A stretch of DNA of 36,619 nt, from the NCBI GenBank assembly GCA_017539325.1, contig JAFYHD010000181.1, positions 1 through 36,619 on the forward strand, given 5' to 3'. This stretch comes from a bacterium. GTDB lineage: Bacteria; Auribacterota; UBA3054. A program made the position numbers and the translations under genes. The notes beneath the pieces were generated by a model. The model had not been told where the DNA came from and made no database searches. It saw only the letters and a list, made by a program, of their open reading frames with translations. Shown one piece after another: positions 1,764 through 31,092 of the stretch. The first letter of the stretch is position 1. Each line of letters begins with the position of its first letter.

Positions 1764-1767
1764 ACTC

Positions 1768-3900: not shown

Positions 3901-4190
3901 TCCGTCCAAGTCATCTCTTTTTCGACTTCGTAAAACTTTTGGCCGTCCCAAATAGGGGCGTCAAGGAAAGCTTGCGCGCATTCTCCACGCTCTTTGCTTT
4001 CATGAGACCAAACATAGCCTTGACATAAAGGATCTTTTGAATCATAAGGCTCTTCAATCTCTAATGTTAGATGATGAATCCCATCTTCATACCATCCCTG
4101 AACAAAATATTTTTTCCCACGGAAAAGAAAATACATTTCAGTGCCGTAATATAAATTGTCGACAAATTCTTTTACATCTCCATCGATCAT
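3897..4190 (-). CDS. Small acidic hypothetical protein, possible immunity or antitoxin-like partner
   Basis: This is a 97-residue protein with no signal peptide or membrane segment, rich in acidic and aromatic residues (YYGTEMYFLFRGKKYFVQGW near residues 13-32, ending EVEKEMTWTD). I do not recognise a named domain. From memory, similar short proteins sit beside MGGRG-type proteins in Firmicutes mobile DNA, but this has not been verified here. Its ATG overlaps the stop of the upstream gene by 4 nt (ATGA-type), implying translational coupling and a shared job. The size, acidity and coupling to a basic small protein would fit an immunity or antitoxin role; that is inference only. The stop is nested with the stop of the convergent subtilase. 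Confidence 0.7.
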   Translation of the reverse strand: MIDGDVKEFVDNLYYGTEMYFLFRGKKYFVQGWYEDGIHHLTLEIEEPYDSKDPLCQGYVWSHESKERGECAQAFLDAPIWDGQKFYEVEKEMTWTD

Positions 4191-4555
4191 ATTTTTACTC
4201 CCACAAAATATTTTTTAAAGTGTTTTCTCATAGCTTTTGGCATCCTATGGGTGGTCCTGTTGAAATTGTCGTCGTAAGTATGATAATGTAGAACCGGTTT
4301 ATCTTTAGGACCTATTTTACCTTCCCTGTGATATGCCAATTCGTACCTTAATTTATGCTCTTTGTTGTAGAGTCTCATCTCGCGAAAAGTACCATCAGGA
4401 TTGAGTTTTATATAGGCCCAACTTGAATGCGATTCCTCCGGTAAGCTGTGTTTACCATTAAGTCCTGTCAGCACTTTTATTCCTTTGATTTTTCCGGAAG
4501 TCTTGTAAGTGTATCGAACATTTTTTCCGTTTGCATAAGTTCCGCGTCCTCCCAT
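4187..4555 (-). CDS. MGGRG-type small basic protein (phage or toxin-like)
   Basis: This is a 122-residue, strongly basic protein that opens with MGGRGTY and ends with a His/Lys-rich region (LHYHTYDD near residue 90, then RMPKAMRKHFKKYF). The MGGRG start and the later YNKEHKLRYELAYH and LHYHTY segments resemble small proteins found in Firmicutes phages and conjugative elements, sometimes as the tail of head-morphogenesis or toxin proteins. That resemblance is from memory and no search was run. It is the middle gene of a three-gene operon: 1 nt after the DUF4417 gene and overlapping the 97-residue gene by 4 nt. A nucleic-acid-binding or toxin role is possible from its charge and conserved His residues. 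No catalytic motif can be assigned. Confidence 0.65.
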   Translation of the reverse strand: MGGRGTYANGKNVRYTYKTSGKIKGIKVLTGLNGKHSLPEESHSSWAYIKLNPDGTFREMRLYNKEHKLRYELAYHREGKIGPKDKPVLHYHTYDDNFNRTTHRMPKAMRKHFKKYFVGVKI

Positions 4556-4556
4556 A

Positions 4557-5174
4557 TTATTTCTTGCTCCTATTATTATACTCTATCACTACAATTTCCC
4601 CATCCATACCCTTGAATGTTTTCCCGTAGCAAATAACTGTTTCTGGACTTATGATTCTCAACATTTCTTTATATCCGAGCATAAATTTATGCTCACTCTT
4701 TCTGCACCCTAGCGTACTGACAGCCACGACCGATCCTCTTTCCACTCCGTCAAAACAAAAATCAAAGCTTTGGCTGGTGCTCCAACTGATCGTGGGAATA
4801 ACACTTAATCCTTTTGACTGCCAATAAAAACCACACCAACGATTCTGCCCAACATTGCATATTTGCTGCCATAATGGCATTTCGGCATACAGAGAAAAAT
4901 CAGGCGTTAACACGAAGGCGTATTGAGAAAGTTTTTGAAAACTTCTGTCCGGATGACGAAACACATCTCTAAATCTATAATCATCCACAAAGAAGTGCAC
5001 TCCCTTTAACCTGTTCCCGTCACTATCATGCGGTTTCGTATCCGAATATGGGATAAGCTGGATTTTATCAATATCGATAGTCTGCCTTCTCACCAAAGGC
5101 AACTCATACTTACCCGTTTGTTCGGATGAATTTCTTAAAAACAGAGGATCTTTTCTCATAATTTTAGCATTCAT
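4557..5174 (-). CDS. DUF4417 family protein
   Basis: This is a 205-residue protein that matches the DUF4417 pattern as I know it. It has an IQLIPYSD entry, then VHFFVDDYRFRDVFRHPD, LTPDFSLYAEMPLWQQICN, a central GLSVIPTISWSTSQSFDFCFDG, VVAVSTLGC, and a C-terminal PETVICYG. Members are common in phages, conjugative elements and other mobile DNA; the molecular function is unknown. It is the first gene of a tight minus-strand operon with the MGGRG-type and 97-residue proteins. The operon is visibly AT-richer than the proteases on one side and the housekeeping genes on the other, which together with the family distribution suggests horizontal acquisition. No strong Shine-Dalgarno is seen before the ATG at 5174. 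Confidence 0.8.
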   Translation of the reverse strand: MNAKIMRKDPLFLRNSSEQTGKYELPLVRRQTIDIDKIQLIPYSDTKPHDSDGNRLKGVHFFVDDYRFRDVFRHPDRSFQKLSQYAFVLTPDFSLYAEMPLWQQICNVGQNRWCGFYWQSKGLSVIPTISWSTSQSFDFCFDGVERGSVVAVSTLGCRKSEHKFMLGYKEMLRIISPETVICYGKTFKGMDGEIVVIEYNNRSKK

Positions 5175-5396
5175 ATTTAATGCACTGTTTAAAACTATGC
5201 ATTGTAATTATCCTCATTGTAAATCGATCTATGTTTACTTTTTGTTATTTTTGTTTATCGCTTAATGAAACGAAAAATTATTTATCTTTGAGCATGTTTA
5301 TAAGAACAACCGGATGAAAATTAGGGATTTTACACTTCTCTGCTTTGGAGATTTTCTGTATTGGCAATTAAGTTCCGAATTCTTTTTTCCCACTTG

Positions 5397-5423
5397 CGCT
5401 ATGTCTTTTTATAGCGTTTTTTT
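5397..5423 (+). terminator. Orphan intrinsic terminator
   Basis: The arms CGCTAT (5397-5402) and ATAGCG (5411-5416) pair perfectly around an 8-nt loop and are followed by seven T residues (5417-5423). The T tract is on the plus-strand side only, so it acts on plus-strand transcripts. No plus-strand gene ends nearby: the closest is the subtilase stopping at 3900. It therefore either ends a small RNA or shields the promoter just downstream. Confidence 0.6.
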
Positions 5424-5440
5424 AATCTCTTGCGTTTACG

Positions 5441-5468
5441 TTGAATTTATTGTGAAATGAGGGATAAT
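5441..5468 (+). promoter_or_regulatory. Sigma70-like promoter for the AlbA_2-type regulator
   Basis: TTGAAT (5441-5446) and GATAAT (5463-5468) are spaced by 16 bp. They lie just upstream of the ATG at 5491, which has a GGAG Shine-Dalgarno at 5481-5484. The implied leader is very short. Confidence 0.5.
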
Positions 5469-5490
5469 AACCATAAACCTGGAGTGATAT

Positions 5491-6888
5491 ATGCAGCAGC
5501 AAGAGAATCAAAACATCGAATATAAGGAGATCTGGAGAGACGAGTGCCTGAAATGGATATGCGGCTTTGCCAACGCTCATGGCGGAACCATCTATGTCGG
5601 AGTCAATGATTCCGGCAAAGTTATTGGCCTGCAAAATGTCAGAAAACTTATGGAGGATATTCCAAATAAGATCCAATCCAGTTTAGGGATCATAGCTGAC
5701 GTAAACAAACATACAGAGAATGGGCTGGACTACATCGAAATAATAGTTGAGCCGAGCTCTTTCCCAATCAGTTATCACGGCGAGTTCCACTATCGCTGCG
5801 GAAACACAAAACAGCAGCTTAGAGGAATGGCCTTATCGGAATTTGTCATGCGTAAACTTGGCGTCCACTGGGAGGACGGAACAGTAGATAACTTAACTGT
5901 TGATGATCTGGACGAGGAAAGCTTTAGGATATTTAAGAGAGAAGCTCTTCGCAAAAAACGAATGACCAAGGAAGAACTTGACATTCCCAGAGAAGAACTC
6001 CTTAACAAACTGCAGCTAATGGAAAACGGCAAGTTGAGACGATCAGCGGTACTTTTGTTCTACCACGATCCTTCGATCCTTCAGAACGGCACTCATGTTC
6101 AGGTTGGTAAATTCGCCAACAGGGTAGATATTTTATACCACGACATGCTGGAAGGATCTTTGATAACGACGGCTGACAAAATTGTTGACTTGATTTTCTT
6201 AAAGTATTTGAAAGCAAAAATTACTTTTGAGCATGACAGACGAATGGAAACATACCCGTACGCTCGCGAAGCCGTTCGCGAGGCAGTATTCAACGCTATG
6301 ATACACAATTGCTACATTCCGGGAACTCCCATACAGATACGCATCGACGAGGACGAGATGATGATAAGCAATACCTGCGTTCTGCCTGAGGGATGGGATT
6401 TGGATTCTTTCATGACCAAACACTCTTCAAAACCATATAATCCCAATGTGGCAAAAGTTTTTTATCTCGCCGGATATATTGAGCATTGGGGACGAGGAAT
6501 CGAAAATATCTTTGACGCTTGCAAGAAACTCGGAGCCGAACCTCCGGTGTACGAATTAATTGGATATACCTTGCAAGTACATTTGAAGGCGTTAAAAAGT
6601 GCGTTGATTGATGAGCAAAAACTTTCAGATGTCGGGAAGGATGTCGGGAAGGATGTCGGGAAGGATGTCGGGAAGGATGTCGGGAAGGATGTCGGGAAGG
6701 ATGTCGGGTTAGCCAACAAAATTATCGGATTAATTCTGAATAACCCAAAAATAACAATTCCAGAAATTGCCAAAAAAATAGAAGTAACATCAAGAACCAT
6801 TGAGCGAGAAATTAAAAAATTACGAGAAAGTGGATATTTAGTTCGTGTAGGTGGCAGAACCTTTGGACATTGGGAAGTCAAAGATTAG
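5491..6888 (+). CDS. AlbA_2/Schlafen-type ATP-binding transcriptional regulator with DVGK repeat
   Basis: This 465-residue protein has three parts. An N-terminal AlbA_2 (Schlafen AAA_4) domain begins at NIEYKE and includes WICGFANAHGGTIYVGVNDSG. A middle domain of the RecG-like/HATPase_c_4 type contains YPYAREAVREAVFNAMIHNCY and GRGIENIFDACKKLG. A C-terminal winged helix contains ITIPEIAKKIEVTSRTIERE. Such proteins are often annotated as putative transcriptional regulators or wrongly as RecG helicases; their ligand is usually unknown. The linker before the winged helix is six perfect DVGK units plus DVG, encoded by an identical 12-bp DNA repeat. The ATG is supported by GGAG six bases upstream. 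It stands alone between an accessory operon and convergent priA. Confidence 0.85.
   Translation: MQQQENQNIEYKEIWRDECLKWICGFANAHGGTIYVGVNDSGKVIGLQNVRKLMEDIPNKIQSSLGIIADVNKHTENGLDYIEIIVEPSSFPISYHGEFHYRCGNTKQQLRGMALSEFVMRKLGVHWEDGTVDNLTVDDLDEESFRIFKREALRKKRMTKEELDIPREELLNKLQLMENGKLRRSAVLLFYHDPSILQNGTHVQVGKFANRVDILYHDMLEGSLITTADKIVDLIFLKYLKAKITFEHDRRMETYPYAREAVREAVFNAMIHNCYIPGTPIQIRIDEDEMMISNTCVLPEGWDLDSFMTKHSSKPYNPNVAKVFYLAGYIEHWGRGIENIFDACKKLGAEPPVYELIGYTLQVHLKALKSALIDEQKLSDVGKDVGKDVGKDVGKDVGKDVGKDVGLANKIIGLILNNPKITIPEIAKKIEVTSRTIEREIKKLRESGYLVRVGGRTFGHWEVKD
6628..6708 (+). repeat. Perfect 12-bp tandem repeat in coding sequence
   Basis: The unit GATGTCGGGAAG is repeated six times without mismatch (6628-6699), followed by a partial GATGTCGGG (6700-6708). 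It encodes DVGK units. Because 12 bp is four codons, gain or loss of units keeps the frame and only changes linker length between the sensor part and the winged helix. Confidence 0.95.
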
Positions 6889-17189: not shown

Positions 17190-19688
<2,499 letters not shown>

Positions 19689-19752: not shown

Positions 19753-19801
19753 CAAAAAAAGCTAACCGCCTTTTAAAGCCCTCCAAGGCCCCAAAAGGCG
19801 G
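19753..19801 (-). terminator. Intrinsic terminator after the first large secreted paralog
   Basis: Arms of nine bases (CCGCCTTTT and AAAAGGCGG, at 19766-19774 and 19793-19801) pair around an 18-nt loop that has a small inner stem. On the minus strand they are followed by TTAGC and a run of seven T residues. This ends transcription of the secreted-protein cluster just before the gyrB promoter. Confidence 0.75.
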
Positions 19802-19838
19802 TCTTACCCATTAAGCACGGCTCCCCCTACGGGCGCGG

Positions 19839-22800
19839 CTATCTCTTAGGCGCCAGAGCCTTCAATTTTTCAACCACGTCATTTCTGCCCTTCTTCGCGC
19901 ACCAATCGAAGAAATATTTAAGATAACGATAGTTATACTCATGTTCCATCAGACCGCTCTTCTCGATGATCGCGCAAAAATCATCGGCGCAGCTGGCGGG
20001 GCTGTCATCGGTTAACCGCTTGGTCAGGAATGGTATATCCCCCGTTATCGGCCCGCCTTCCTTCCTAATGAAGGAAATTAGTTCCGCGAACTCCTTGGGA
20101 TCATCGGTAAAGCAGGCCAATTCAACGGCATAAGGCAGACTGTGCTCTTTTTCCCAGCCCCCTTTTACGAAAGACTGGAACCAGTTGGTCTCGGACAATT
20201 GCCCAAGCCTTCTCAAAGTAAGCAGGTCATGTTTCGGCAGTTTCGTCAGATACGGCAGAACTATCTCTTTAGCAAGCTTCATTTGGTAATCATTATAACC
20301 GGACCAGAGCCAATACGTTCTCAAAACACTTTCAAGATCTTTTTCCGCCTGAGCCTGCAGCCATTTTTTGTCAAATTCTTCCCGATCAGGGAAAAGCGTC
20401 TTGTGTAATTTTCTTATTTCACGTCTTTCAAAGTGACGCCTTATCGCGTCAAGCGCTTGAAAATAGTCCTCGTGATCTTCCGGAATAAGATAGACCTTTT
20501 CCGCAGGATAATTATCAACTAAGAACGTCAAAGCTTCTTCCGCGTGTTTTCGTTCAGAGAGAACTGTACAATATTGCTTAAGCAAGGCCAGACATTCCGG
20601 ATGCTCTTTCAACGCTTCTTTAGCGTATTGAATAAAAATCTCCTCCTGCCCGTATTCCTTGCAAAAAGCGAACGTCTCTTCAATATCCCATTTGAACAGA
20701 CTAGGCATGTAAATGGAAGGCTGCCATCGGTCGCCATATCCGAACACGTTCCTCTCAAAATCGTTAGTCTCATGATAATGCAGCCTGGAATAATCAAGAG
20801 TATTCAAAACTCTTTCGGCTACTCTTGGAAGTTCGTTGGTCTGATCAAGAAAAACCAGCGCATCCGCCACCTGGTAAAAAGTTATTGAATCAAGTATTTC
20901 GTAAGCGGCAGAACTACCGGAAAAAAGCGATGCGATATGGTTTCGTCTTAAACACTTTTCGTTGACGGACGCGTTGACCAGAGCATCGACGAATTCTTGG
21001 AAGGTAAAATGCCCGGCTTTTTCGCAATTCTCCAAAAGCCTCGTCTTGAGTTCCTCCTTTATAATTCCGGTGTTGTCTTTCAAATTTTCCAGCGGAAATT
21101 TCGCGAAATCAAGCCAGTTTGCCACCGCCTCGGATAATTTGTCCGTAAAAAGCAGTCTTTTCCAAAGCGGCAACCATTCGCTTTGGGAGTGCCTGAAGTA
21201 ATAGGTCTGCTTTTTTGTCGACACTGGAGAATATTCAATTTCCTTCTCTATTTTTTCTTCAAGCGCCTTTTTAGGATCGTAATAGGTGATTTTATCTTTC
21301 CGTTCTGTGTTTTTCAGGATAGAATCAACTTCACTTGCAACTTCAGGAACGTTCTTTGAAAGGCACCATTTCTTAAACCGTTCAGCATAATAAGGAAAAT
21401 CAGGATTGCTCTTTATATCGCTTCCCTGTATCATGTCGAGAATAATCTTGGCGCAAGATGAGGGGTAATTATCCCTAAGGCTGACAATAATGCATGATAT
21501 CCCCACTTGGTCTTTCTCGGGAGATAAGATCCTCAAACAGTTTGTAAACTCCTCCGGATCGTCGGTAAGAGTGGCTAGATAAAGTGCGCAGAAAATATTG
21601 TCTTCTTTTTTCAGCTTTTTCCTTAGGTAACACTTGAAATCATCCTGATCAGATATCTCGGAAAGCCTTCTGACAATCGATAAAGAAGGCTTTTCAACGT
21701 TTTCAAGCATCGGCTTAACCAACTTTTTTTTGATTTCATCATAAGAAAGATACGTCAGAGAGGAATGCGATGGGCTTTGGCCTTCCCAAAACCATCCGGC
21801 ACTTCGGCAGAACTCATGAGGATTGTGATAGAGTTGCCATTGAAGCACCTTAAAAAGAGGAGACGGCTCTTCCCTGGTGCTTATAGTATCATTCAATGAA
21901 ACGCGCAATCCTGCATATTCAGGGTAAGCTTCCGTGAAAGTGCATATCTTATCAACATTAAAATGCTTATTTAAAAACTCTATGGCTTTTTCCCTATTAC
22001 CAAGGCGCTCACAATAAAATTTCGTGAGAAAAAAACAATTGCTTTGAGTATCGGCAAAACTTTCAAGCTCTTTAAAAAAACTGTCCTTAATGCCGCAGCG
22101 TTCAGCGAACATAAACAATTCCCACCATTTGCCGATAATATCATTCTTAATTAACTTATAATAGCCTTCGAAACTAAAAGTAGTTATATCTCCCAAAGAT
22201 TGTTCGCCTAATGTGCTGCCGCAAAATTCTCTATAATCTCCTTTTTTCAGTTCCTCCAACTTGTCCAGCAAAATCTTTTCACCACCGTTTTTCAGGCTAA
22301 GAATTTTCAGTACATCGCTTACGCTTTTAAAATTATAAGAATATCTTGTAGCTGTTTTTTTCTGTTCATTCTTTGAAAAGTACATATAAGCATAGCACGC
22401 CGGATAACAGCAGTTCCCATCCGTACGCATCTTTAAAAGCGCATCGGAAAAATCATCCAGCGTGAAGTGGCCTGGTTCTTCGCAGAGTTTTTTAAATTCA
22501 GTCGCAATGTTCAAAAAATGAGAATCGTCCGGCCAAGTAGGATTGTCGACTTGACACAGGAAAAAGAGCGGGACTTTCGCAAAGTTTAGCCAGTTGGTGA
22601 CGGACTCCGCCAGCGTTCCGTTCAATAGAATCTCTTTCCAAACCGGCAGCCATTCTTCCTTTGGAGCTGTTCTGTGATATTCCCACTGCGCTTTGAGAGG
22701 ATCGGATATTTCCTTTTCCTTGGCGTATTTCTCAATGTTCTCTTTCAATTTCTGGGAAGGAGAAAGAGATGTTTCTTCCGCCATTGAAACAACGGAACAG

Positions 22801-22850
22801 GCGAACGCGAAAGCTATAAGCGCGAGCAAAATATAATTGAGCTTTTTCAT
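19839..22850 (-). CDS. Large secreted two-module protein, unknown family (paralog 1)
   Basis: This is a 1003-residue protein from the ATG at 22850, chosen for its signal peptide (MKKLNYILLALIAFAFACSVVSMA) and an AGGAG seven bases upstream. No known domain is recognised. It contains two homologous modules of about 500 residues. Each begins with an EWLPxWK...NWLxFAK block (near residues 66 and 557), followed by a HFTxxxFxDAL block. Each ends with a RRL..S, GWEKE-like, TDDPxEF, PASCA and F..WC series. It is predicted all-helical and soluble after export, resembling a solenoid, with scattered Cys and no enzyme motif. Paralogs lie directly upstream in the same orientation. It is AT-richer than the gyrase genes next to it. 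A surface or periplasmic role in protein binding is possible but not shown. Confidence 0.85.
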   Translation of the reverse strand: MKKLNYILLALIAFAFACSVVSMAEETSLSPSQKLKENIEKYAKEKEISDPLKAQWEYHRTAPKEEWLPVWKEILLNGTLAESVTNWLNFAKVPLFFLCQVDNPTWPDDSHFLNIATEFKKLCEEPGHFTLDDFSDALLKMRTDGNCCYPACYAYMYFSKNEQKKTATRYSYNFKSVSDVLKILSLKNGGEKILLDKLEELKKGDYREFCGSTLGEQSLGDITTFSFEGYYKLIKNDIIGKWWELFMFAERCGIKDSFFKELESFADTQSNCFFLTKFYCERLGNREKAIEFLNKHFNVDKICTFTEAYPEYAGLRVSLNDTISTREEPSPLFKVLQWQLYHNPHEFCRSAGWFWEGQSPSHSSLTYLSYDEIKKKLVKPMLENVEKPSLSIVRRLSEISDQDDFKCYLRKKLKKEDNIFCALYLATLTDDPEEFTNCLRILSPEKDQVGISCIIVSLRDNYPSSCAKIILDMIQGSDIKSNPDFPYYAERFKKWCLSKNVPEVASEVDSILKNTERKDKITYYDPKKALEEKIEKEIEYSPVSTKKQTYYFRHSQSEWLPLWKRLLFTDKLSEAVANWLDFAKFPLENLKDNTGIIKEELKTRLLENCEKAGHFTFQEFVDALVNASVNEKCLRRNHIASLFSGSSAAYEILDSITFYQVADALVFLDQTNELPRVAERVLNTLDYSRLHYHETNDFERNVFGYGDRWQPSIYMPSLFKWDIEETFAFCKEYGQEEIFIQYAKEALKEHPECLALLKQYCTVLSERKHAEEALTFLVDNYPAEKVYLIPEDHEDYFQALDAIRRHFERREIRKLHKTLFPDREEFDKKWLQAQAEKDLESVLRTYWLWSGYNDYQMKLAKEIVLPYLTKLPKHDLLTLRRLGQLSETNWFQSFVKGGWEKEHSLPYAVELACFTDDPKEFAELISFIRKEGGPITGDIPFLTKRLTDDSPASCADDFCAIIEKSGLMEHEYNYRYLKYFFDWCAKKGRNDVVEKLKALAPKR

Positions 22851-22914
22851 GGGACACTCCTTTCGGGGAAATTGTGAATAACTACCATATCTATTATACA
22901 ATAACCCTTGTCAA
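22851..22914 (-). promoter_or_regulatory. Conserved upstream block of paralog 1
   Basis: This 64-bp block before the ATG is nearly identical (four mismatches by eye) to the block before paralog 3 (29394-29457). It contains TTGACA (22914-22909) and TATAAT (22898-22893), but only 10 bp apart, so they are not a standard pair. The TATAAT, or a -10-like hexamer about 17 bp after the TTGACA, may serve. Similarity stops exactly upstream of the TTGACA, at a run of 14 A residues. Confidence 0.5.
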
Positions 22915-22990
22915 AAAAAAAAAAAAACGCCTATAAGTTGGCTTATATAAGATGGTTATATATGCAAGCCCGTTCTTTCGCGGCTATGCC

Positions 22991-23044
22991 AAAATGGACA
23001 GGTGTCCATTTTAGTAACCACCAAAATGGATAGGTGTCCATTTT
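22991..23044. repeat. Two tandem perfect/near-perfect palindromes
   Basis: The arms AAAATGGACA (22991-23000) and TGTCCATTTT (23003-23012) flank GG. A second copy, AAAATGGATA (23023-23032) with TGTCCATTTT (23035-23044), has one changed base. With flanks the two copies form a 26-bp direct repeat at a 32-bp period. They lie 7 bp after the stop of paralog 2, so they may act as A/T-flanked bidirectional terminators, or as a dyad-symmetric protein-binding site or REP-like element. Confidence 0.85.
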
Positions 23045-23050
23045 AGGAAA

Positions 23051-25981
23051 CTAAATCTGTTGTTTAAGCGAGTTAAGTTTGTCCGCTAGGTCTTTTCTTC
23101 CTTTCTTTTCACACCACTCGATAAAATGACCCAAAAAACGCCGATTGTATTCTGTTTTCAACATTCCACTTTTTTCAACGAGCGTCATCATATCATCAGC
23201 GCAAGAGGCTGGGCTATCATCATTCAATCTATAGGTTAAAAACGCTACGTCTCCTAACTTGGGGCAGCCTTCCTTTGCGATGAAAGAAAGCAATTCGGCA
23301 AATTCTTTGGGGTCTTCTGTAAGGCAGGCCTCTTCTATCGCAAAAATAAGATTTTTATTCTTCTCCCAGCCTTCTTTAACGAAAGCCTTGAACCAGTTGG
23401 TTTCGGAAACCTCTTCCAAGCGGCGCAAAGTCAGCATATCCTGCTTGGGCAAAGCCGCCAAATAGGGCTGAACAACTTCTTTTTTTAATTGATCTCTGCG
23501 CTGGTTGGAACCATACCAATAATCATACAATCTTAAAGTTCTTTCACAATTATCTTCCAGCTGAGTCTTGAGCCATTTTTTTGTGATCTCTTTACTATCC
23601 CAACCTATGCTGTCGATGAATTTATAGGATTCTAAATTATCATCCGCAATATGATAAATCTTATCCAAGGTGTAATTCTTTTCTACAAAGGCAACCGCTT
23701 CCTGCTTTTTATCTTGTTTTATTAGTTCTAAACAATATTTATCAAGCAAAGGCAAAGCTTCATAATGTTCTTTAAGCGCTTCCGGAGCATATTTTAAAAA
23801 AACATCCTCTTGTCCATATTCTTTGCAGAAAGACCATCGGTTCTCAAGATCCCAAACAAATGCGCTTGGACCAATAATATCGGCCACCCAACGGGATGGA
23901 CCATCTTTGCGCCCGACGCATATTGAACTCTCGTGATGAAAAATTCTGGTGCTTTGCAGCAAAGAATAATCAAGAGCATCTAGCACCTTTTCAGCAACTC
24001 TGTGAAGCTCGTTGGTCTGATCAAAGAAAACCAACGTGTCGGCCACCTCGTAAAAAGTGGTAGTTCTAAGGCATTTTTCGATGGCTCGAGTATCTGAAAA
24101 AACTATAAAATCTTTCCTATGATAATAGTTTTTATCCACAGTTGGGGCGTTGATTAGAGCATCTATAAACTCCTGAAAGGAAAAATGGCCTTCTTTTTCA
24201 CAGGCCTCCAAAAGCCTAAATTTCAGTTCTTTTTTTATTATGCCTGCTTTGTCCTTCATTTTTCCCATTGGAAATTTTGCAAATTCTAACCAATTGGTGA
24301 CAGCCTCTGACAAATCGTCCGGGGACAGCAGTTTTTTCCAACGTGGCAACCACTCTGTCTGTGAGGTTTCTTTATAATATTTTTCTCTTAATTTTAATCT
24401 TAATCCTAGAGCATCTAAAAAAGGGATCTCTTTAAGCTCTTTTGGGGAATCCGAATCACTTTTTCTAGCTATTTCCTCGGTGTTTTGAAGAATAGCATCA
24501 ATTTCTGAAGCCGCCCCGGTGATATTTTTGGCAAGACACCATTTTTTAAAATGTTTGCCATAAAAAAGAAAATCCGGGTTATTATCAATTTTGCTCTTTC
24601 TTATCATTTCCAGGATTGGTTCGGCGCAGGAGGCGGGGAAATTTTCCCTCAGGTTTAAAATAATGCAAGATACGCCCACCTGATTTTCCAAGCCGGTCAG
24701 TAATTTTAAGGAAGCCTCAAATTCTTCAGGGTCTTCAGTCAAAGCTGCCAGAAACATCGCCAAATTGATATCTTCTCGCTTTTTAAGCTTATTTCTTAGG
24801 TAAGATTTGAAATCCTCCGGCTCGGAAATCAAAAAAAGTCTTCTTATAACTGAGAAGGAGGGATAGTCTTCATCTTCGAGTATTGGTTTAATAAAATGCG
24901 TCTTTTCGTGAACATAATGATCATAATCGTAATCGTTTTCCAACCCTGGCCCGCTCCAGAACCATTCTGCTTGATTGCAGAAATTATCACGATTATAATA
25001 CAACTGCCATGTAAAAAATTGAAATATAATCGAACTGCGATAAGGCTCGTCCAAAGTAATATTCAAATTCCTGCATAAGCTAACATATTCCGGCAATGCC
25101 TCTGTCAGAGTGCAGACTTTATCCAACGGGAAATTGCTTTGAACTAATTCTTTTGCCAATTCTTTATCACGCAGAAAGTTGTAATAGTATTGTGTCAAGA
25201 AAAAGCAATTGCTTTTTAGGCTAGCCACTTTTTTCAGTCCGTCCAAAAATGCCGTTTTGGTATTGTAATGCAAAGAAAATCTATACAATATATCCCACTT
25301 CTTCAAGATGCCGTTTTTCTTAGGGATCGATAAATAATCGCAGGTGCTCATGTCACCTAGCACTGGCTCCTTGGTTGTAATACCGCGAAATTCTCGATAA
25401 TCGCCTTTTCTTAAATCCTCGGACAATTTAAGAGTTATTTCATCCAATTTATCGTTAAGTCCCAAAAGCTTTAAAACATCACAGAGGTCGTAAATGTTGT
25501 AAACGCTATTTTTGGCGCAGAATTTTCTGTTTTCACTAGCTTGTACTAGATTTGATATGTTTAAAATACCGTCTTTGCACTCAAGCAATTTATTGGCAAA
25601 TTCGCTGGCGGTAAAATAATTTGAAGAAGCGCATTTCTCATAAAATAAGGTTCTTAACCTTTCGCTTACATCATTGTTATGCCCAAGGACGTAAGGAAAA
25701 TGTCCCCTTGCTAAATAGATCCAAAAGTAGGTGTGCATTGATGAGTGGGGAAAAAGTATTTTTTCCCACAGGGGAAGCCATTTTTCCTTGGGAGTTGCCT
25801 TGTAGTATTCCTCGTAAACATCCATCGGTTTAGCGATATCATTTGCTTTCCCAAATTCCTCAATGCTTTTAGATAACTCAACATATGCGTCATAAGGATA
25901 ATCACTATCAGCGAAAGAATTATTGCAAATCGCAATCATTAAGCTCGCCGACACAAGCAAAAGATAGTTGAGTCTTTTCAT
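23051..25981 (-). CDS. Large secreted two-module protein, unknown family (paralog 2)
   Basis: This is a 976-residue paralog of the genes on either side. The signal peptide is MKRLNYLLLVSASLMIAICNNSFA, and AGAGGA lies upstream of the ATG at 25981. It has the same two-module plan: KWLPLWEKIL near residue 64 and EWLPRWKKLL near residue 541. Each module then has the F...EF...AL, ADTLVFFDQTNELHRVAEKVL-type and TEDPxEF...PASCA blocks, and ends ..HFIEWCEKKGRKDLADKLN. Sequence identity with paralogs 1 and 3 is spread along its whole length but is clearly lower than between the N-termini of 1 and 3, so it is an older copy. No known domain is recognised. The 226-bp region before it contains a relic of a serine acetyltransferase gene. 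Confidence 0.85.
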   Translation of the reverse strand: MKRLNYLLLVSASLMIAICNNSFADSDYPYDAYVELSKSIEEFGKANDIAKPMDVYEEYYKATPKEKWLPLWEKILFPHSSMHTYFWIYLARGHFPYVLGHNNDVSERLRTLFYEKCASSNYFTASEFANKLLECKDGILNISNLVQASENRKFCAKNSVYNIYDLCDVLKLLGLNDKLDEITLKLSEDLRKGDYREFRGITTKEPVLGDMSTCDYLSIPKKNGILKKWDILYRFSLHYNTKTAFLDGLKKVASLKSNCFFLTQYYYNFLRDKELAKELVQSNFPLDKVCTLTEALPEYVSLCRNLNITLDEPYRSSIIFQFFTWQLYYNRDNFCNQAEWFWSGPGLENDYDYDHYVHEKTHFIKPILEDEDYPSFSVIRRLFLISEPEDFKSYLRNKLKKREDINLAMFLAALTEDPEEFEASLKLLTGLENQVGVSCIILNLRENFPASCAEPILEMIRKSKIDNNPDFLFYGKHFKKWCLAKNITGAASEIDAILQNTEEIARKSDSDSPKELKEIPFLDALGLRLKLREKYYKETSQTEWLPRWKKLLSPDDLSEAVTNWLEFAKFPMGKMKDKAGIIKKELKFRLLEACEKEGHFSFQEFIDALINAPTVDKNYYHRKDFIVFSDTRAIEKCLRTTTFYEVADTLVFFDQTNELHRVAEKVLDALDYSLLQSTRIFHHESSICVGRKDGPSRWVADIIGPSAFVWDLENRWSFCKEYGQEDVFLKYAPEALKEHYEALPLLDKYCLELIKQDKKQEAVAFVEKNYTLDKIYHIADDNLESYKFIDSIGWDSKEITKKWLKTQLEDNCERTLRLYDYWYGSNQRRDQLKKEVVQPYLAALPKQDMLTLRRLEEVSETNWFKAFVKEGWEKNKNLIFAIEEACLTEDPKEFAELLSFIAKEGCPKLGDVAFLTYRLNDDSPASCADDMMTLVEKSGMLKTEYNRRFLGHFIEWCEKKGRKDLADKLNSLKQQI

Positions 25982-26034
25982 AACGCTATCCTCTGGAAGA
26001 ATGATTTAAAGAAAAACTCCATGTACATTCTACT

Positions 26035-26059
26035 ATATTTTTGTGAAAAACAAAAATAT
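26035..26059. repeat. AT-rich inverted repeat upstream of paralog 2
   Basis: ATATTTTTGT (26035-26044) and ACAAAAATAT (26050-26059) are perfectly complementary around five bases. The repeat lies 54 bp upstream of the ATG of paralog 2 on the minus strand. It could be an operator or a weak terminator of the upstream unit. Confidence 0.5.
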
Positions 26060-26098
26060 AAACACAATATTACTAACAAATTAAATGAAAAAACTCTT

Positions 26099-26179
26099 TT
26101 ATGAGCGGAAGGTGACGACTGCGCCGGGGGCGACGTTGGATGTCACCCAGCTTTTGCCGCCTATTACGGCCGACGAATA
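26099..26179 (-). pseudogene. Relic of the 3' end of a second serine acetyltransferase gene
   Basis: Reading the minus strand to the stop at 26101-26099 gives about 25 codons ending IGGKSWVTSNVAPGAVVTF-RS-stop. The end of the intact cysE at 30214 reads IGGNSWVTEDVPPGTLVTF-RS-stop. The match covers the last hexapeptide turns and the exact C-terminus. Similarity stops upstream near 26177, where the frame soon meets a stop. The fragment lies between the end of paralog 3 and the start of paralog 2. Confidence 0.8.
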
Positions 26180-26207
26180 GTTGCAATGCTTAAATCATTA
26201 AAACTTA

Positions 26208-29200
26208 TTAACGGTTTCTTTTTGCAGTTTTTCCTTGGGCAATTTTTGATTTAACTTCTTCAGCAACAGCATTGTCACCTTTGCTTTCGCACCATTCCAT
26301 AAATATCTGCAATTGCTTTAGGGCGCTGTATTCGTCCGTAAGTTCGTTTGTCTCTATCAAACTCAAAAAAGATTTTGCACAGCTTGCAGGGGTTTTTTCA
26401 TTTAATTTTCCTATTAAGAAACAAATATCTCCCTTATTCAAGTATTTGTTCTCAGCCAAAAACGCCACAAGTTCTTCAAATTCCTTGGGATCATCCGTCA
26501 AGCACACCTTCTCAACAGCGAATGGCAGGGTTTTCTCCTTCTCCCATCCTGTGTTAAGGTAATCTTTAAACCAGTTTGTCTCTGATATTTGCCCAAGTCG
26601 GCGCAAAGAACTAAAACTCTGTTTCGGCATAGCCAGAATATAAGGCTTTACGACTTCCTTGGCTATAGCTATCCTCTTCTGGTCCAAATTAAACCAGAAC
26701 CAGTACGCTGTTAAAAAAGCCTCTATATCCTTTTCCATCTGCGCTTTTACGCTGTTCTTATCAAGTTCATCTTGACTAGGGAAGAATTTATCCACTCCGC
26801 ATTCTTCCATGCGTGCATCAACGTCTATCCCAAAAAATTTATCCATAAAGTAATTATGGAGCGTTGCTTCGATACTACTACAGTTTTGCACCGCTCCGGG
26901 AACAGGATAAAACTTTTCAGGCGGATAATTATTTCTTACAAAATCCCAAGCCTCTTCTCCCCTCTCTTGTTCAACGAGGTATGAGCAGTAATTCTGAAGC
27001 AATAAAAATTCATCAGGATGCTCTTTAAGGATCTCCTTAACAGCATTCTCGTAAGCATCGCAAGCCCCGAAATCTTTGTAGTCTTTGCAGAAACAAAAAG
27101 CCCACCAAACATCGGGAGTGTTATTTGGACTCGAAACCGGCATGCTGCCACGCTGATAAGAGCAAATTTCGCCACCCTCTCTCAAGTCCAACTCACCGGA
27201 TTTGGAAAAATCCAAGCTTTTCATAAGCCTGGTTGCCAAACGCGGTATCTCATTGGTGCAACCCAAAAACACAAGCGCGTCAGCTATCTGATAAAAAGTC
27301 AGGGAATTCCGCAGACGTTCAGCCCTGTCAATGTCAGAATACCACCCAGCAGAATTCACTGGGTCAATTGATTCGCTGACAGGAGCTTTGACAAGAGCGT
27401 CCACAAATTCATTAAAAGTGAATTGCCCATTCTCTTCGCAATATTTTCTGAAACGGTCGTTCAATTCCCTCTTTAAAGTGCCGCTGCTGTCCTTAAGGTT
27501 GTGCATCGGGAACTTAGCGAATATAAGCCAATTGGAAACGGACTGGGAGAGATTTCCGGAAACAAGGATTTGTTTCCATGCCGGCATCCATTCGCGCTGA
27601 GGATTATTTTTATAGTAAATTTCCTTTCTTGAAATTGGAAACAAATTTATCGTTTTGCTTATCTTTTCGTCAAGAAATCTTCTGGGGTCGTTTCTCCACT
27701 CCGGTTCTTTCACTTTTGTCTCGCGGATCAGTTTGTCCAGTTCAGATACCACAGCAGTTTCACCAACCTTATCACACCACTTTCTGAATTTATCGGCATA
27801 ATACGGGAAATCGTGATTGGCCGCAATTTCGCTCGCCTTTATCAACTTCAATATGCCATCTGCGCAGGAGGCGGGAAAATTATCTCTTAAATTGGTTATG
27901 ATGCAGGCCACTTCCGCTTCGTTTATGCGTATGAGGCATTCTCCCGACAATCTTGGTTCTTTATGCGTCAAAACTTCCACGGCTTTTGCAAAATCTTCCG
28001 GATCGTCTGTTATAACGGCCAGTTCGAAAGCCACCGCATTATTCGGCTGTTTTTGTCTTGCTGATTTTTCTTTAAACTTTTTCCCTAAATAATCTTTGAA
28101 ATCCTCAATATCAGACTGCTCGCCTAAACGCCTTATGGTGTATTCGGAATGGTAATCCAAACCTTCCAGCATCGGCTTAGCTATTTTTCTTTTAGCTTTA
28201 CTGTAACTGTCGAATTTGTTTTTCCTGCCGCTTTCCCAAAACCATTTTCCCCATTCGCAAAACTGAGGTGCGTTGGAATACAGCTGCCACATGACCACCT
28301 CGCAATCTCCGCCTGGCTCTCTTCCGGAACGATATATAGGCATTTCCAATTCGTTGCATAAAGAAACATACCCTTCATATGCGCAAGGCATTTTGCAAAT
28401 CTTCTCTAAGGGATAAAACTTTTTAAGGAACTCGCGCGCGGTTTCGCGATCGTCATAGTCGCAGAGAGTATCGCAATAAAGTTTTGCCAGCGGAAAGTAA
28501 TTCGAATGAATTTCCGCAGCCTCTTTCAAGCCTTTCACAAAGGTATTTTGCATTCTGCAATGATTGGCCAGCCCGGAAAGCCCTAACCATACCGAATTAT
28601 TGCCTTTAAAAGAAATTTGCGTATCGATGCTCGGCTGGCTCGCTGTCCAATCAATACTGATATCATGATCATAATAAGGATCATCTGTAGTGTTCTTGAT
28701 CAACGGGATATCGTCAAACGTTGAATCAATGTCTCCCAAGCAGCGATTTTTGTAAAAAGTTTGAACAAATTCATTATAATTCGCTTTTTTCAATCTCTCC
28801 AGCCATGCAGATATGATATTTTCTATCTCCTTAGTCGAGCCCAAAAGTCTCAGCGCATCGCATACGTTGAAAAAATGATAAGAGTTCTTGGTGGCCCATG
28901 TTTTATGTTCACTTTGACCAGCGTATTTAAATAAATCGCCAGCCGGATAACAGCAATCACCATCTGTGCGCACCTTTAAAAGCGCGGCGGAAAAATCATC
29001 CAGCGTGAAGTGGTCCGGTTCTTCGCACAACTTTTTAAAATCAGTCGCGATATTCAAAAAACGAGAATCGTCCGGCCAAGTAGGGTCATCGACCTGACAC
29101 AGGAAAAAGAGCGGCACTTTCGCAAAGTTGAGCCAGTTGGTGACCGACTCCGCCAACGTTCCGTTCAATAGGATCTCTTTCCAAACCGGCAGCCATTCTT

Positions 29201-29393
29201 CCTTCGGCGTTTTTTCGTGATATTCCCACTGCGCCTGAAGAGAATCAGATATTTCTTTTTCCTTGGCATATTTCTCAATGTTCTCCTTCAATTTCTGAGA
29301 GGGGGAAACGGGCGTTTCTTCCGCCATTGAAACGACGGAGCAGGCGAAAGCGAAAGCTATGAGCGCGAGCGGAAGATAATTGAGCTTTTTCAT
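26208..29393 (-). CDS. Large secreted two-module protein, unknown family (paralog 3)
   Basis: This is a 1061-residue protein from the ATG at 29393, chosen for its signal peptide (MKKLNYLPLALIAFAFACSVVSMA) and an AAAGGA upstream. It is the longest of the family. Module 1 begins with EWLPVWKEILLNG near residue 66, module 2 with EWMPAWKQIL near residue 600. Both show the later PASCA (TPASCAKSFLSLIE in module 2) and ..FMEWCESKG endings. The first ~145 residues are almost identical to paralog 1, after which the two diverge abruptly. The C-terminus ends in a basic stretch (AQGKTAKRNR). No known domain is recognised. It is transcribed toward paralog 2 and follows the truncated paralog at 29467. Confidence 0.85.
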   Translation of the reverse strand: MKKLNYLPLALIAFAFACSVVSMAEETPVSPSQKLKENIEKYAKEKEISDSLQAQWEYHEKTPKEEWLPVWKEILLNGTLAESVTNWLNFAKVPLFFLCQVDDPTWPDDSRFLNIATDFKKLCEEPDHFTLDDFSAALLKVRTDGDCCYPAGDLFKYAGQSEHKTWATKNSYHFFNVCDALRLLGSTKEIENIISAWLERLKKANYNEFVQTFYKNRCLGDIDSTFDDIPLIKNTTDDPYYDHDISIDWTASQPSIDTQISFKGNNSVWLGLSGLANHCRMQNTFVKGLKEAAEIHSNYFPLAKLYCDTLCDYDDRETAREFLKKFYPLEKICKMPCAYEGYVSLCNELEMPIYRSGREPGGDCEVVMWQLYSNAPQFCEWGKWFWESGRKNKFDSYSKAKRKIAKPMLEGLDYHSEYTIRRLGEQSDIEDFKDYLGKKFKEKSARQKQPNNAVAFELAVITDDPEDFAKAVEVLTHKEPRLSGECLIRINEAEVACIITNLRDNFPASCADGILKLIKASEIAANHDFPYYADKFRKWCDKVGETAVVSELDKLIRETKVKEPEWRNDPRRFLDEKISKTINLFPISRKEIYYKNNPQREWMPAWKQILVSGNLSQSVSNWLIFAKFPMHNLKDSSGTLKRELNDRFRKYCEENGQFTFNEFVDALVKAPVSESIDPVNSAGWYSDIDRAERLRNSLTFYQIADALVFLGCTNEIPRLATRLMKSLDFSKSGELDLREGGEICSYQRGSMPVSSPNNTPDVWWAFCFCKDYKDFGACDAYENAVKEILKEHPDEFLLLQNYCSYLVEQERGEEAWDFVRNNYPPEKFYPVPGAVQNCSSIEATLHNYFMDKFFGIDVDARMEECGVDKFFPSQDELDKNSVKAQMEKDIEAFLTAYWFWFNLDQKRIAIAKEVVKPYILAMPKQSFSSLRRLGQISETNWFKDYLNTGWEKEKTLPFAVEKVCLTDDPKEFEELVAFLAENKYLNKGDICFLIGKLNEKTPASCAKSFLSLIETNELTDEYSALKQLQIFMEWCESKGDNAVAEEVKSKIAQGKTAKRNR

Positions 29394-29457
29394 GGGACTA
29401 TCCTTTCGGTGAAATTGTGAATAACTACCATTTCTATTATACAATAACCCTTGTCAA
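29394..29457 (-). promoter_or_regulatory. Conserved upstream block of paralog 3
   Basis: This 64-bp block is nearly identical to the one before paralog 1 (22851-22914), including TTGACA (29457-29452), TATAAT (29441-29436) at 10 bp spacing, and the Shine-Dalgarno region. Its left edge lies 9 bp after the stop of the truncated paralog, so the block seems to have arrived together with the paralog 3 gene. Confidence 0.5.
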
Positions 29458-29466
29458 ATCTTTCGG

Positions 29467-30213
29467 TTATTTGGAATCAAGACGCGAGTTTGGCTGATAC
29501 TTTAAAAAGACCGGCAAACAGCCGTATGTTTCACAAAAGCGGCGAGCCCCGGCTAGGTCATGGGAAAATATTCTATCCAAAAAAACATCTTCATTAGGAT
29601 CCGCTGGCTTGTCGAGAGATTTCATCACTCTTTCGGCGACTTTCGGAAGCTCGTTGGTCAGATCCAGGTAAACAAGCGCGTCGGCCAGATTATAAAAAGT
29701 GATTGAAAATCTAACCTCGTCCGCGGCGCGAGAGAGTGACAGGAATTTAGCCGAGGAGTTGGGCAGGAGGCATTTCTCGTTGACCTCGGCATTGACAAGA
29801 GCAGAAGTAAATTTCTCAAAGGAATAATGGCCTTCCTTTTCGCAGCCGGCTTTCAATTTCTCTTTCAGTTCCAGCCGAACGCTTTCGTTGGTTATGCTGC
29901 TCATGTAGGTGTTGGAGAACCTTAGCCAATTTTTGACGGTATCGGAAAGGTCATCCTGGACAAGAATTTTTTCCAAAAGCGGAAGCCATTCCTCTTTCGG
30001 CGTCTTCGCGAAGTACTCTGTTTCGTCATCAACGAGCCAGCGCCTCGTTTCGTTGTTCTCTTTGCTGAATTTGTATATTTTTTCCCACAGCTGGCTGAAA
30101 GGATCGGGTTTGCAAATATCTAGAAACGCGGACACACTGAAATCGGTCTGCGGAAAATCCGCAACCACTGTAAGGGACGCAAAAAGAATGGCGAAAAAGA
30201 ATACGCGGAACAT
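29467..30213 (-). CDS. Truncated secreted paralog (half a module, paralog 4)
   Basis: This 248-residue protein has its own signal peptide (MFRVFFFAILFASLTVVA) and covers only the first half of one module of the large secreted family. It has EEWLPLLEKIL, DTVKNWLRFSN, HYSFEKFTSALVNAEVNEKCLLPN, LADALVYLDLTNELPKVAERV and RRFCETYGCLPVFLKYQ. It then ends in an unrelated short tail (PNSRLDSK) exactly where the paralogs continue with an EALKEH-type helix. The start codon directly abuts the stop of cysE, with no gap. It is either a true short member or a gene cut by the insertion of the paralog 3 unit; the position of the break next to that unit's upstream block favours the second. Confidence 0.75.
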   Translation of the reverse strand: MFRVFFFAILFASLTVVADFPQTDFSVSAFLDICKPDPFSQLWEKIYKFSKENNETRRWLVDDETEYFAKTPKEEWLPLLEKILVQDDLSDTVKNWLRFSNTYMSSITNESVRLELKEKLKAGCEKEGHYSFEKFTSALVNAEVNEKCLLPNSSAKFLSLSRAADEVRFSITFYNLADALVYLDLTNELPKVAERVMKSLDKPADPNEDVFLDRIFSHDLAGARRFCETYGCLPVFLKYQPNSRLDSK

Positions 30214-31092
30214 TCAGGAGCGGAAGGTGACAAGGGTGCCTGGAGGGACGTCTTCGGTGACCCAGCTGTTGCCGCCTATAGTGGCGCCTTTGCCTATGGT
30301 GATGTCGCCGAGGATGGTGGCGTTAGCGTAGATGATGACGTCGTCCTCGATGGTGGGATGGCGTTTACTGTTCCTGGCTTCCCTGGCGTTGGGTGGGAAG
30401 GATTTGGCGCCTAAGGTGACGCCCTGGTAGAGTTTGACGTTTCTGCCTATTACGGTGGTTTCGCCAATGACGACGCCGGTGGCGTGGTCGATGAAGAAGC
30501 GCTCGCCTATTTTGGCGCCCGGGTGAATGTCAACGCCGGTCCTTCTGTGGCCGTACTCCGTCATGATCCTGGGGATAAGGGGAACGCCCATGGAATGAAG
30601 CTCATGAGCCAGGCGCTGAATGGCGATGGCTAGGAAGCCCGGATAGCAGAGGATCACTTCCTCCTTGGCGAAGCAGGCGGGGTCGCCGTCGTAGGCGGCC
30701 TCTATGTCGGTCTTGATTAGGGATCTTACTTTGGGGAGAGTAAGGAGGAAGACTTCCGTAAGGGAAGCGGCTTTGGCTTCGCAGCGGGATTTGTCGCAGT
30801 CGGGGCGTTCGTCTCCCCTGCAGACATAGTTGATGCCTCTCAGGATCTGCTCGGTAAGCTTCGCCTTGACTTCCTCAAGGCGGTAGACCGTGACCGCCGC
30901 GAAGTTCGCTTTAGTCAGACGCTCGGAACCGAAAAAGCCGGGAAGGACGAGAGCTAAGAGCGCCTCGGTTAAGGAAGCGATGTCGTCGCTGCTCGGCAGG
31001 TTCAGTCCGTCGATATGGTTGATGTTGCCGTCCTCTTTGTAGCTTTCGACTAAGTTGGAGGCGGCGTCGCTGACTAGTTTGTTATTGGGCAT
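30214..31092 (-). CDS. cysE: Serine O-acetyltransferase (EpsC/CysE type)
   Basis: This 292-residue enzyme makes O-acetylserine from serine and acetyl-CoA, the first step of cysteine synthesis. An N-terminal helical domain with RCEAKAASL and IKTDIEAAYDGDPA is followed by the left-handed beta-helix: EYGHRRTGVDIHPGAKIG, FFIDHATGVVIGETTVIG, LYQGVTLGAKSFP, HPTIEDDVIIYANATILG, GATIGGNSWV. The conserved Asp and His of the active site are in VDIHP and IDHATG. The long N-terminus is of the EpsC-like type. It follows a PTS IIA gene by 7 bp, and a truncated secreted paralog abuts its stop. A decayed copy of its 3' end lies about 4 kb away at 26099. Confidence 0.95.
   Translation of the reverse strand: MPNNKLVSDAASNLVESYKEDGNINHIDGLNLPSSDDIASLTEALLALVLPGFFGSERLTKANFAAVTVYRLEEVKAKLTEQILRGINYVCRGDERPDCDKSRCEAKAASLTEVFLLTLPKVRSLIKTDIEAAYDGDPACFAKEEVILCYPGFLAIAIQRLAHELHSMGVPLIPRIMTEYGHRRTGVDIHPGAKIGERFFIDHATGVVIGETTVIGRNVKLYQGVTLGAKSFPPNAREARNSKRHPTIEDDVIIYANATILGDITIGKGATIGGNSWVTEDVPPGTLVTFRS

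What the first reader, a model, noticed from the sequence alone, without database searches (positions are those of the whole stretch)
19839..30213. Undescribed secreted protein family, tandemly expanded and internally duplicated
Three proteins of about 976-1061 residues plus a 248-residue relative lie head-to-tail, all with signal peptides. Each large protein is two copies of one ~500-residue module: EWLPxWK and NWLxFAK near residues 65-90 of each module, then FxDAL, ADALVFLDQTNELPRVAERV-like, RRLGQxSE, TDDPxEF, PASCA and F..WC. I recognise no Pfam-type domain or catalytic motif. The regular helical blocks suggest a solenoid scaffold. Two levels of duplication (module, then gene) plus a terminator isolating the cluster from gyrB point to a selected surface or periplasmic system of unknown function.
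Basis: partly seen in the sequence, partly recalled or inferred. Interest (0 to 1): 0.75.

Follow-up and report, generated by a model that had tools for sequence, protein, structure and literature searches.

The report
Shuffled array of secreted helical proteins
A bacterial genus of a poorly known phylum carries a private family of exported, all-helical proteins whose genes are added, swapped and recombined between two housekeeping genes, so that nearly every strain has a different set; their task is unknown but probably involves binding something outside the cell.

Summary
Three genes (1003, 976 and 1061 aa) and a 248-aa relative lie head to tail between cysE and gyrB. Each large protein is two diverged ~490-aa modules; the small one is the N-terminal half of a module. 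No Pfam, NCBIfam, PHROGs, PADLOC or PDB sequence match is significant. AlphaFold2 gives a confident all-helical solenoid (pLDDT 89) that resembles TPR/HAT proteins only in general shape. The family is in all 8 held genomes of the genus and in none of 376 others. The six genomes where it can be read hold different sets (D; A; A-like; B-A; nuclease-D-truncated C; D-C-B-A). The window keeps a 74-bp displaced cysE 3' end between C and B, the scar of an insertion anchored in cysE. Parts of A and B are 98-100% identical to another species whose gyrB is only 91% identical. A dyad (CCAAAATGGA-N6-TCCATTTTGG) was found in these genomes only at this locus. Best reading: exported ligand-binding scaffolds whose repertoire is exchanged between strains. 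Ligand and function are not shown.

The parts
19839..22850 (-). Gene A, 1003 aa, signal peptide plus two modules (M1 21294-22769, M2 19842-21293); mosaic gene
   Evidence: mosaic: residues 101-500 have dS about 0 to A of G001, flanks dS 1 or more
23051..25981 (-). Gene B, 976 aa, two modules (M1 24470-25897, M2 23054-24469)
   Evidence: about 98% identical in DNA to B of G004
26208..29393 (-). Gene C, 1061 aa, two modules (M1 27708-29312, M2 26211-27707)
29467..30213 (-). Gene D, 248 aa, N-terminal half of one module, of the second-module type; start codon overlaps the cysE stop
26097..26170 (-). Displaced 3' end of a cysE gene (last 24 codons, IGGKSWVTSNVAPGAVVTFRS-stop), scar of an insertion anchored in cysE
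   Evidence: 97% to the tail of G004/G005 cysE, 74% to the window's own cysE tail in the last block
30214..31092 (-). cysE (serine O-acetyltransferase), left border of the hotspot; its last ~60 bp are of a different allele type (type 1, with D)
17190..19676 (-). gyrB, right border of the hotspot
22989..23012 (-). Locus-specific dyad, copy 2: AAAATGGACACCTGTCCATTTTGG
23021..23044 (-). Locus-specific dyad, copy 1: AAAATGGACACCTATCCATTTTGG; the DNA shared with G004 ends here
22851..22914 (-). Leader of A, promoter-like (TTGACA ... TATAAT) with ribosome-binding site, shared with C; preceded by a T15 run
   Evidence: sequence; no transcription data
29394..29457 (-). Leader of C, nearly identical to that of A
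   Evidence: sequence
19764..19803 (-). Intrinsic terminator (18-pair stem, T run) between the array and gyrB, conserved in the genus

Best explanation
A, B, C and D belong to an undescribed, genus-restricted family of exported alpha-solenoid proteins. They most likely act as ligand-binding scaffolds in the periplasm or outside the cell. Their genes are accessory cassettes in a recombination hotspot between cysE and gyrB. New cassettes enter by recombination anchored in the 3' end of cysE: the incoming DNA brings its own cysE tail, and the old tail is pushed downstream with the older genes, as at 26097-26170. Homologous exchange then makes mosaic genes such as A. SHOWN here: family, two-module build, predicted solenoid fold (prediction only), genus restriction, variable gene content, displaced cysE tail, exchange between species, purifying selection. 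INFERRED: export (signal peptides), binding function (from the fold class and lack of any catalytic motif), and that the variable partner is biological (phage, competitor, host or food polymer), because the repertoire differs between strains. My confidence is about 0.85 for family plus hotspot and about 0.5 for the whole statement including the binding role.
For: No significant match in Pfam, NCBIfam, PADLOC, PDB sequences, phage or plasmid records, and only a negligible partial PHROGs hit. AlphaFold2 on one module with 18 sequences: pLDDT 89, pTM 0.84, about 27 helices and no sheet. The two-module model is weaker (pLDDT 77). Foldseek finds only TPR/HAT/HEAT-type solenoids at low TM-score (best 0.28). 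Genus restriction: 8 of 8 genus genomes, 0 of 376 others at E 1e-5; 0 of 36 others in the phylum at 1e-4. Content differs by genome. cysE tail has two allele types and the window holds both, one displaced. B and the middle of A are 98-100% identical to G004 while gyrB is 91%; dS 0.04 for B and about 0 for A residues 101-500 against 0.40 for gyrB. G001 and G004 share a ~100% block inside A with 91-95% flanks. omega 0.13-0.37 for the locus genes against 0.05-0.07 for gyrB.
Against: No ligand, localisation or expression data. Export is read from N-termini by eye. Low omega shows constraint, not diversifying selection, so a variable biological partner is an inference. Sequences are metagenome bins: some mosaic joins could be assembly chimeras between co-occurring strains. 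The displaced cysE tail shares only about 17 bp with cysE at its left junction and has diverged, which speaks against a simple mis-join, but no reads were checked.
Confidence: 0.5

Rival explanations
1. The array is a poly-immunity store: exported inhibitor or immunity proteins against toxins of competing strains, kept as a growing list as new ones are added, like the immunity gene arrays of Vibrio cholerae type VI clusters.
For: Tandem diverged paralogues, export, exchange between species, displaced 3' end of the anchor gene, the same growth rule as proposed for V. cholerae arrays (homology-facilitated illegitimate recombination; PMC5361080).
Against: From general knowledge, known periplasmic immunity proteins are mostly small (roughly 100-250 aa); these are about 1000 aa with two modules. 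No toxin gene is linked in any of the loci read. The anchor is cysE, not an effector.
Confidence: 0.15
2. The proteins are envelope scaffolds with an ordinary cellular job (assembly, stress, peptidoglycan or secretion), and the variation in copy number is mostly neutral gain and loss at a permissive spot.
For: Purifying selection, a member of the wider family in every genus genome including other loci, each large gene with its own promoter-like leader.
Against: Repertoires differ in all six readable genomes, including one with only the 248-aa D (G002) and one with only A (G001); mosaic exchange is concentrated inside the gene bodies.
Confidence: 0.22
3. The genes are low-G+C cargo of a mobile element or phage with no role of their own in the cell.
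For: G+C 38-46% against 54-59% around; a YhcG/DUF1016 nuclease gene sits in the same slot in G005.
Against: No integrase, transposase or phage gene in the array; no relative in 50,697 phage and 72,556 plasmid records (single-protein tblastn) or in IMG/VR (narrow scan with A alone); long open frames under purifying selection.
Confidence: 0.1

Closest known systems
TPR and HAT repeat solenoids (e.g. Naa15, OGT, PRP6/CTR9-type proteins)
   Same: Right-handed-type stacks of helix pairs by Foldseek resemblance; W/F/A patterns such as NWLxFAK recall HAT helices; weak sub-threshold Pfam HAT and TPR_19 hits
   Different: No Pfam model reaches its cut-off, best TM-score 0.28, no regular repeat found by profile self-comparison, and the proteins carry signal peptides
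Recombination hotspots flanked by core genes and lacking mobile elements (Oliveira et al. 2017, PMC5635113)
   Same: Accessory genes change between two core genes (cysE, gyrB), no integrase seen, exchange reaches into the border genes
   Different: Here the content is almost all one private protein family, and a displaced border-gene 3' end is kept inside the array
Immunity gene arrays of Vibrio cholerae type VI clusters (Kirchberger et al. 2017, PMC5361080)
   Same: Additive insertion anchored on one homologous side, older genes and a 3' fragment pushed downstream, mosaic genes from exchange
   Different: No effector or secretion genes; proteins four times larger or more; anchor is a metabolic gene

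Membership tests
TPR (Pfam TPR clan) | Significant match to a TPR model | tested here: not met
   Best is TPR_19 E 0.06, 14 bits against a cut-off of 25
TPR (Pfam TPR clan) | All-helical two-helix solenoid | tested here: inconclusive
   Module model is all-helical with pLDDT 89, nearest PDB folds are TPR proteins but at TM-score 0.28 or lower
HAT repeats | Significant match to the HAT model | tested here: not met
   HAT E 0.04, 14 bits against 21
HEAT / Sel1 repeats | Significant match to a HEAT or Sel1 model | tested here: not met
   No hit listed up to E 1; HEAT-type folds (karyopherins) appear only as weak fold matches
Core-gene-flanked hotspot of gene turnover | Different accessory genes between the same two core genes in related genomes | tested here: met
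   Six different contents between cysE and gyrB in G000, G001, G002, G004, G005, G007; cysE link of G004 and G007 rests on contigs that start inside cysE
Core-gene-flanked hotspot of gene turnover | Homologous exchange across the region | tested here: met
   Sharp identity steps
Poly-immunity array | Additive arrays with displaced 3' remnants | tested here: met
   26097-26170
Poly-immunity array | Cognate toxin or effector gene | tested here: not met
   None in the array or in the loci read
Poly-immunity array | Protein neutralises a toxin | not testable with these tools
   Needs an assay

The most novel reading that the evidence does not exclude
The dyad CCAAAATGGA-N6-TCCATTTTGG is a site-specific recombination or control site private to this locus, and the array is a dedicated cassette system for diversifying exported solenoid proteins. 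In support: the dyad was found nowhere else in the genus genomes searched, it sits upstream of A-type genes and of the truncated C of G005, its inner 6 bases vary while the arms are fixed, G007 carries the inner 6 bases of G004 in inverse orientation, and the DNA shared with G004 ends at the dyad in the window. A plain operator or a stem-loop would look much the same.
Probability: 0.1. Interest if true: 0.75.

Novelty: new variant of a known kind. Interest (0 to 1): 0.47.

Why it matters
It gives a dated, readable example of how a private family of large exported proteins grows: insertion anchored in the 3' end of a housekeeping gene, then exchange between species inside the genes. If the proteins bind phage, competitors or host material, this is a strain-variable interaction system in an uncultured lineage where no such system has been described. 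It also offers a new predicted alpha-solenoid family for structural work.

Tried and rejected
Known repeat families (TPR, HAT, HEAT, Sel1) by Pfam, NCBIfam and PDB sequence search: nothing above threshold. DDT, Sec7, DExH18_N, DUF4734 and similar Pfam hits: short, below cut-off, inconsistent between members. Phage or plasmid origin: no hit. Defence family: no PADLOC hit for A-D. Regular short repeat inside the module by profile self-comparison: not found. Dyad as an intrinsic terminator: it folds well as RNA together with its twin (z -4.6) but has no U run after the stem, so I leave it open. The interval in G003 and G006 could not be read (no gyrB contig found there, whose empty answer has no positive control).
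Full report
WHAT IS THERE. The window is one contig (C150) of a 1.99 Mb draft genome bin. On the minus strand, between cysE (30214-31092, called by NCBIfam) and gyrB (17190-19676), lie four genes. I name them in window order: A 19839-22850 (1003 aa), B 23051-25981 (976 aa), C 26208-29393 (1061 aa) and D 29467-30213 (248 aa). Transcription runs D to A. All four start with a signal-peptide-like stretch. G+C is 38-46% in these genes and 54-59% in gyrB, gyrA, cysE and the next genes; G+C at third positions is 40-55% against 64-81%. A, B and C hold 27, 23 and 32 cysteines.

MODULES. A, B and C are each two modules of about 475-535 residues. Module 1 against module 2 of the same protein scores 364, 248 and 375; the best of 200 shuffles each is 68. 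In a tree of ten full modules, all first modules and all second modules form two clades with 100/100 support. So the module duplication is older than the split into A, B and C. D matches the first ~200 residues of a second-type module (35-44% identity) better than of a first module (24-29%). The same half module stands alone as 234-288 aa exported proteins in G001, G003, G005 and G007. Single-module relatives of about 620-1280 aa, at 20-29% identity, lie in other slots: between argH-like and mazG-like genes in G000, G005 and G006, next to the mazG-like gene in G003:C43 and next to argH in G003:C117, and elsewhere in G004. They too are low in G+C (41-45%).

FOLD. No Pfam family reaches its cut-off, NCBIfam gives none, PHROGs gives only a negligible partial hit, PADLOC gives none for A-D and PDB sequences give none that matter. 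AlphaFold2 with 18 module sequences gives an all-helical model, pLDDT 89, pTM 0.84. The full two-module protein with 8 sequences is less certain (pLDDT 77, pTM 0.56). Foldseek against the PDB finds only general helical solenoids: Naa15, SPINDLY and OGT TPR domains, PRP6/CTR9-type HAT and TPR proteins, karyopherins, with TM-score at most 0.28. So it is a solenoid by shape, and not a recognised member of TPR, HAT, HEAT or Sel1. These are predictions; no structure was measured.

SPREAD. A profile of 18 modules finds the family in 8 of 8 held genomes of the genus and in none of 376 others, among them 36 of the same phylum. A is not found in phage, plasmid or IMG/VR collections by single-protein searches. 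gyrB is only about 56% identical to the nearest named genomes that were returned (Kiritimatiellae, Omnitrophota, Victivallaceae). I therefore do not name the phylum.

THE GAP BETWEEN cysE AND gyrB IS A HOTSPOT. Contents read in cysE-to-gyrB order: G002 D; G001 A; G007 an A-like gene; G004 B-A; G005 a YhcG/DUF1016 nuclease gene, D and a C-like gene cut short at 723 codons (one stop); window D-C-B-A. In G004 and G007 the array contig starts inside cysE. In G003 and G006 the interval could not be read. In G004, G006 and G007 the assemblies break at nearly the same place in cysE (codons ~195-213), as expected if the population holds more than one version of what follows.

THE SCAR. Between C and B, at 26097-26170, lies the 3' end of a cysE gene, in frame with its stop: AVIGGKSWVTSNVAPGAVVTFRS*. 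cysE in this genus has two kinds of 3' end over the last ~60 bp. Type 1 occurs in the window and G002, directly joined to D. Type 2 occurs in G001, G004, G005 and G007. Types differ by about 23-26% there, while most of the rest of the gene differs by about 5-12%. The scar is type 2 (92-97% to type 2 tails, 74-77% to type 1). Together with what follows it (B and its downstream dyad, 26170-23021) it is about 98% identical to G004. The simplest history: a cysE-B-A-gyrB arrangement as in G004 received an insert [type 1 tail-D-C] anchored in cysE, and the old tail was pushed downstream. [quoted passage not shown] Many hotspots without mobile elements show recombination at flanking core genes (PMC5635113).

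EXCHANGE BETWEEN SPECIES. Against G004, B is about 98% identical and window 22441-21241 (middle of A) about 100%, while A falls to 73-83% on both sides of that block and gyrB is 91%. In codons, A residues 101-500 have dS about 0 against G001, residues 601-1000 have dS above 1, B has dS 0.04, and gyrB has dS 0.40 against G004. G001 and G004, two other bins, share a ~2.2 kb block in A at 98-100% with flanks, including gyrB, at about 90-98%. A is therefore a mosaic. Caveat: in metagenome bins some such joins can be assembly chimeras.

SELECTION. omega is 0.13-0.37 for A, B and D pairs, with C at 0.15 on near-saturated dS, against 0.05-0.07 for gyrB and 0.11-0.12 for cysE. The genes are constrained, more loosely than the core. 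There is no gene-wide sign of diversifying selection; with mosaic genes these pairwise values are only rough.

CONTROL REGIONS. A and C have nearly identical 64-bp leaders with promoter-like and ribosome-binding sequence. The A-type leader follows a T run of 12-18. Upstream of it lies a dyad, CCAAAATGGA-N6-TCCATTTTGG, one copy in G001, G004, G005 and G007 and two in the window. With up to 2 mismatches it is nowhere else in the window's genome, and with the pattern it is nowhere else in the genus genomes. G007's copy has a changed outer arm (seen) and so was missed by that pattern. Operator, RNA stem or recombination site: not decided. The terminator 19764-19803 belongs to the gyrB side and is there in all readable genomes.

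HOW IT MOST LIKELY WORKS. Shown: private family, helical prediction, variable repertoire, insertion scar, exchange, constraint. Inferred: exported, long helical scaffolds without catalytic motif bind a partner by their surface; strains differ in which proteins they carry because the partner varies. The invariant W/P/C/F residues of the N-half probably hold the fold, since they are shared by all members. I give 0.5 to the whole statement. Rivals: poly-immunity (0.15), ordinary envelope scaffold with neutral turnover (0.22), mobile-element cargo (0.1).

VERDICT. Real, undescribed, of moderate interest. The fold class and the hotspot behaviour are known kinds; the combination in one private exported family is new.

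Noticed in passing
window 4187-6888: Another low-G+C patch (38-43%): a 122-aa ORF, a DUF4417 gene and a Schlafen/AlbA_2 plus RecG-C-like regulator with a (DVGK)n repeat, beside priA.
   Followed up: partly
window 48-3900: Two subtilase (S8) genes in tandem in overlapping frames; the second ends in a PEP-CTERM-like tail (VPEPASYAVILIFMAFFTLARARS).
   Followed up: partly
L156 7247-8299 (G005): YhcG/DUF1016 PDDEXK nuclease gene (PADLOC candidate PDC-S02) sits in the same cysE-gyrB slot.
   Followed up: yes
L146, L147, L148, L149, L150: A second slot, argH to mazG/lipB-like genes, holds a diverged low-G+C single-module relative of 620-1196 aa in G000, G003, G005 and G006, possibly a second hotspot for the same family.
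   Followed up: partly
L152 4198-16608 (G003), L154 (G007): Half-module genes lie beside ATPase_2/AAA genes and tandem ~555-aa exported proteins; one tested has an FGE-sulfatase domain, a fold often used by diversity-generating retroelement targets; no retroelement search was made.
   Followed up: no
L111, L112, L113, L114, L115: Three independent draft genomes break inside cysE at almost the same codons (about 195-213).
   Followed up: partly
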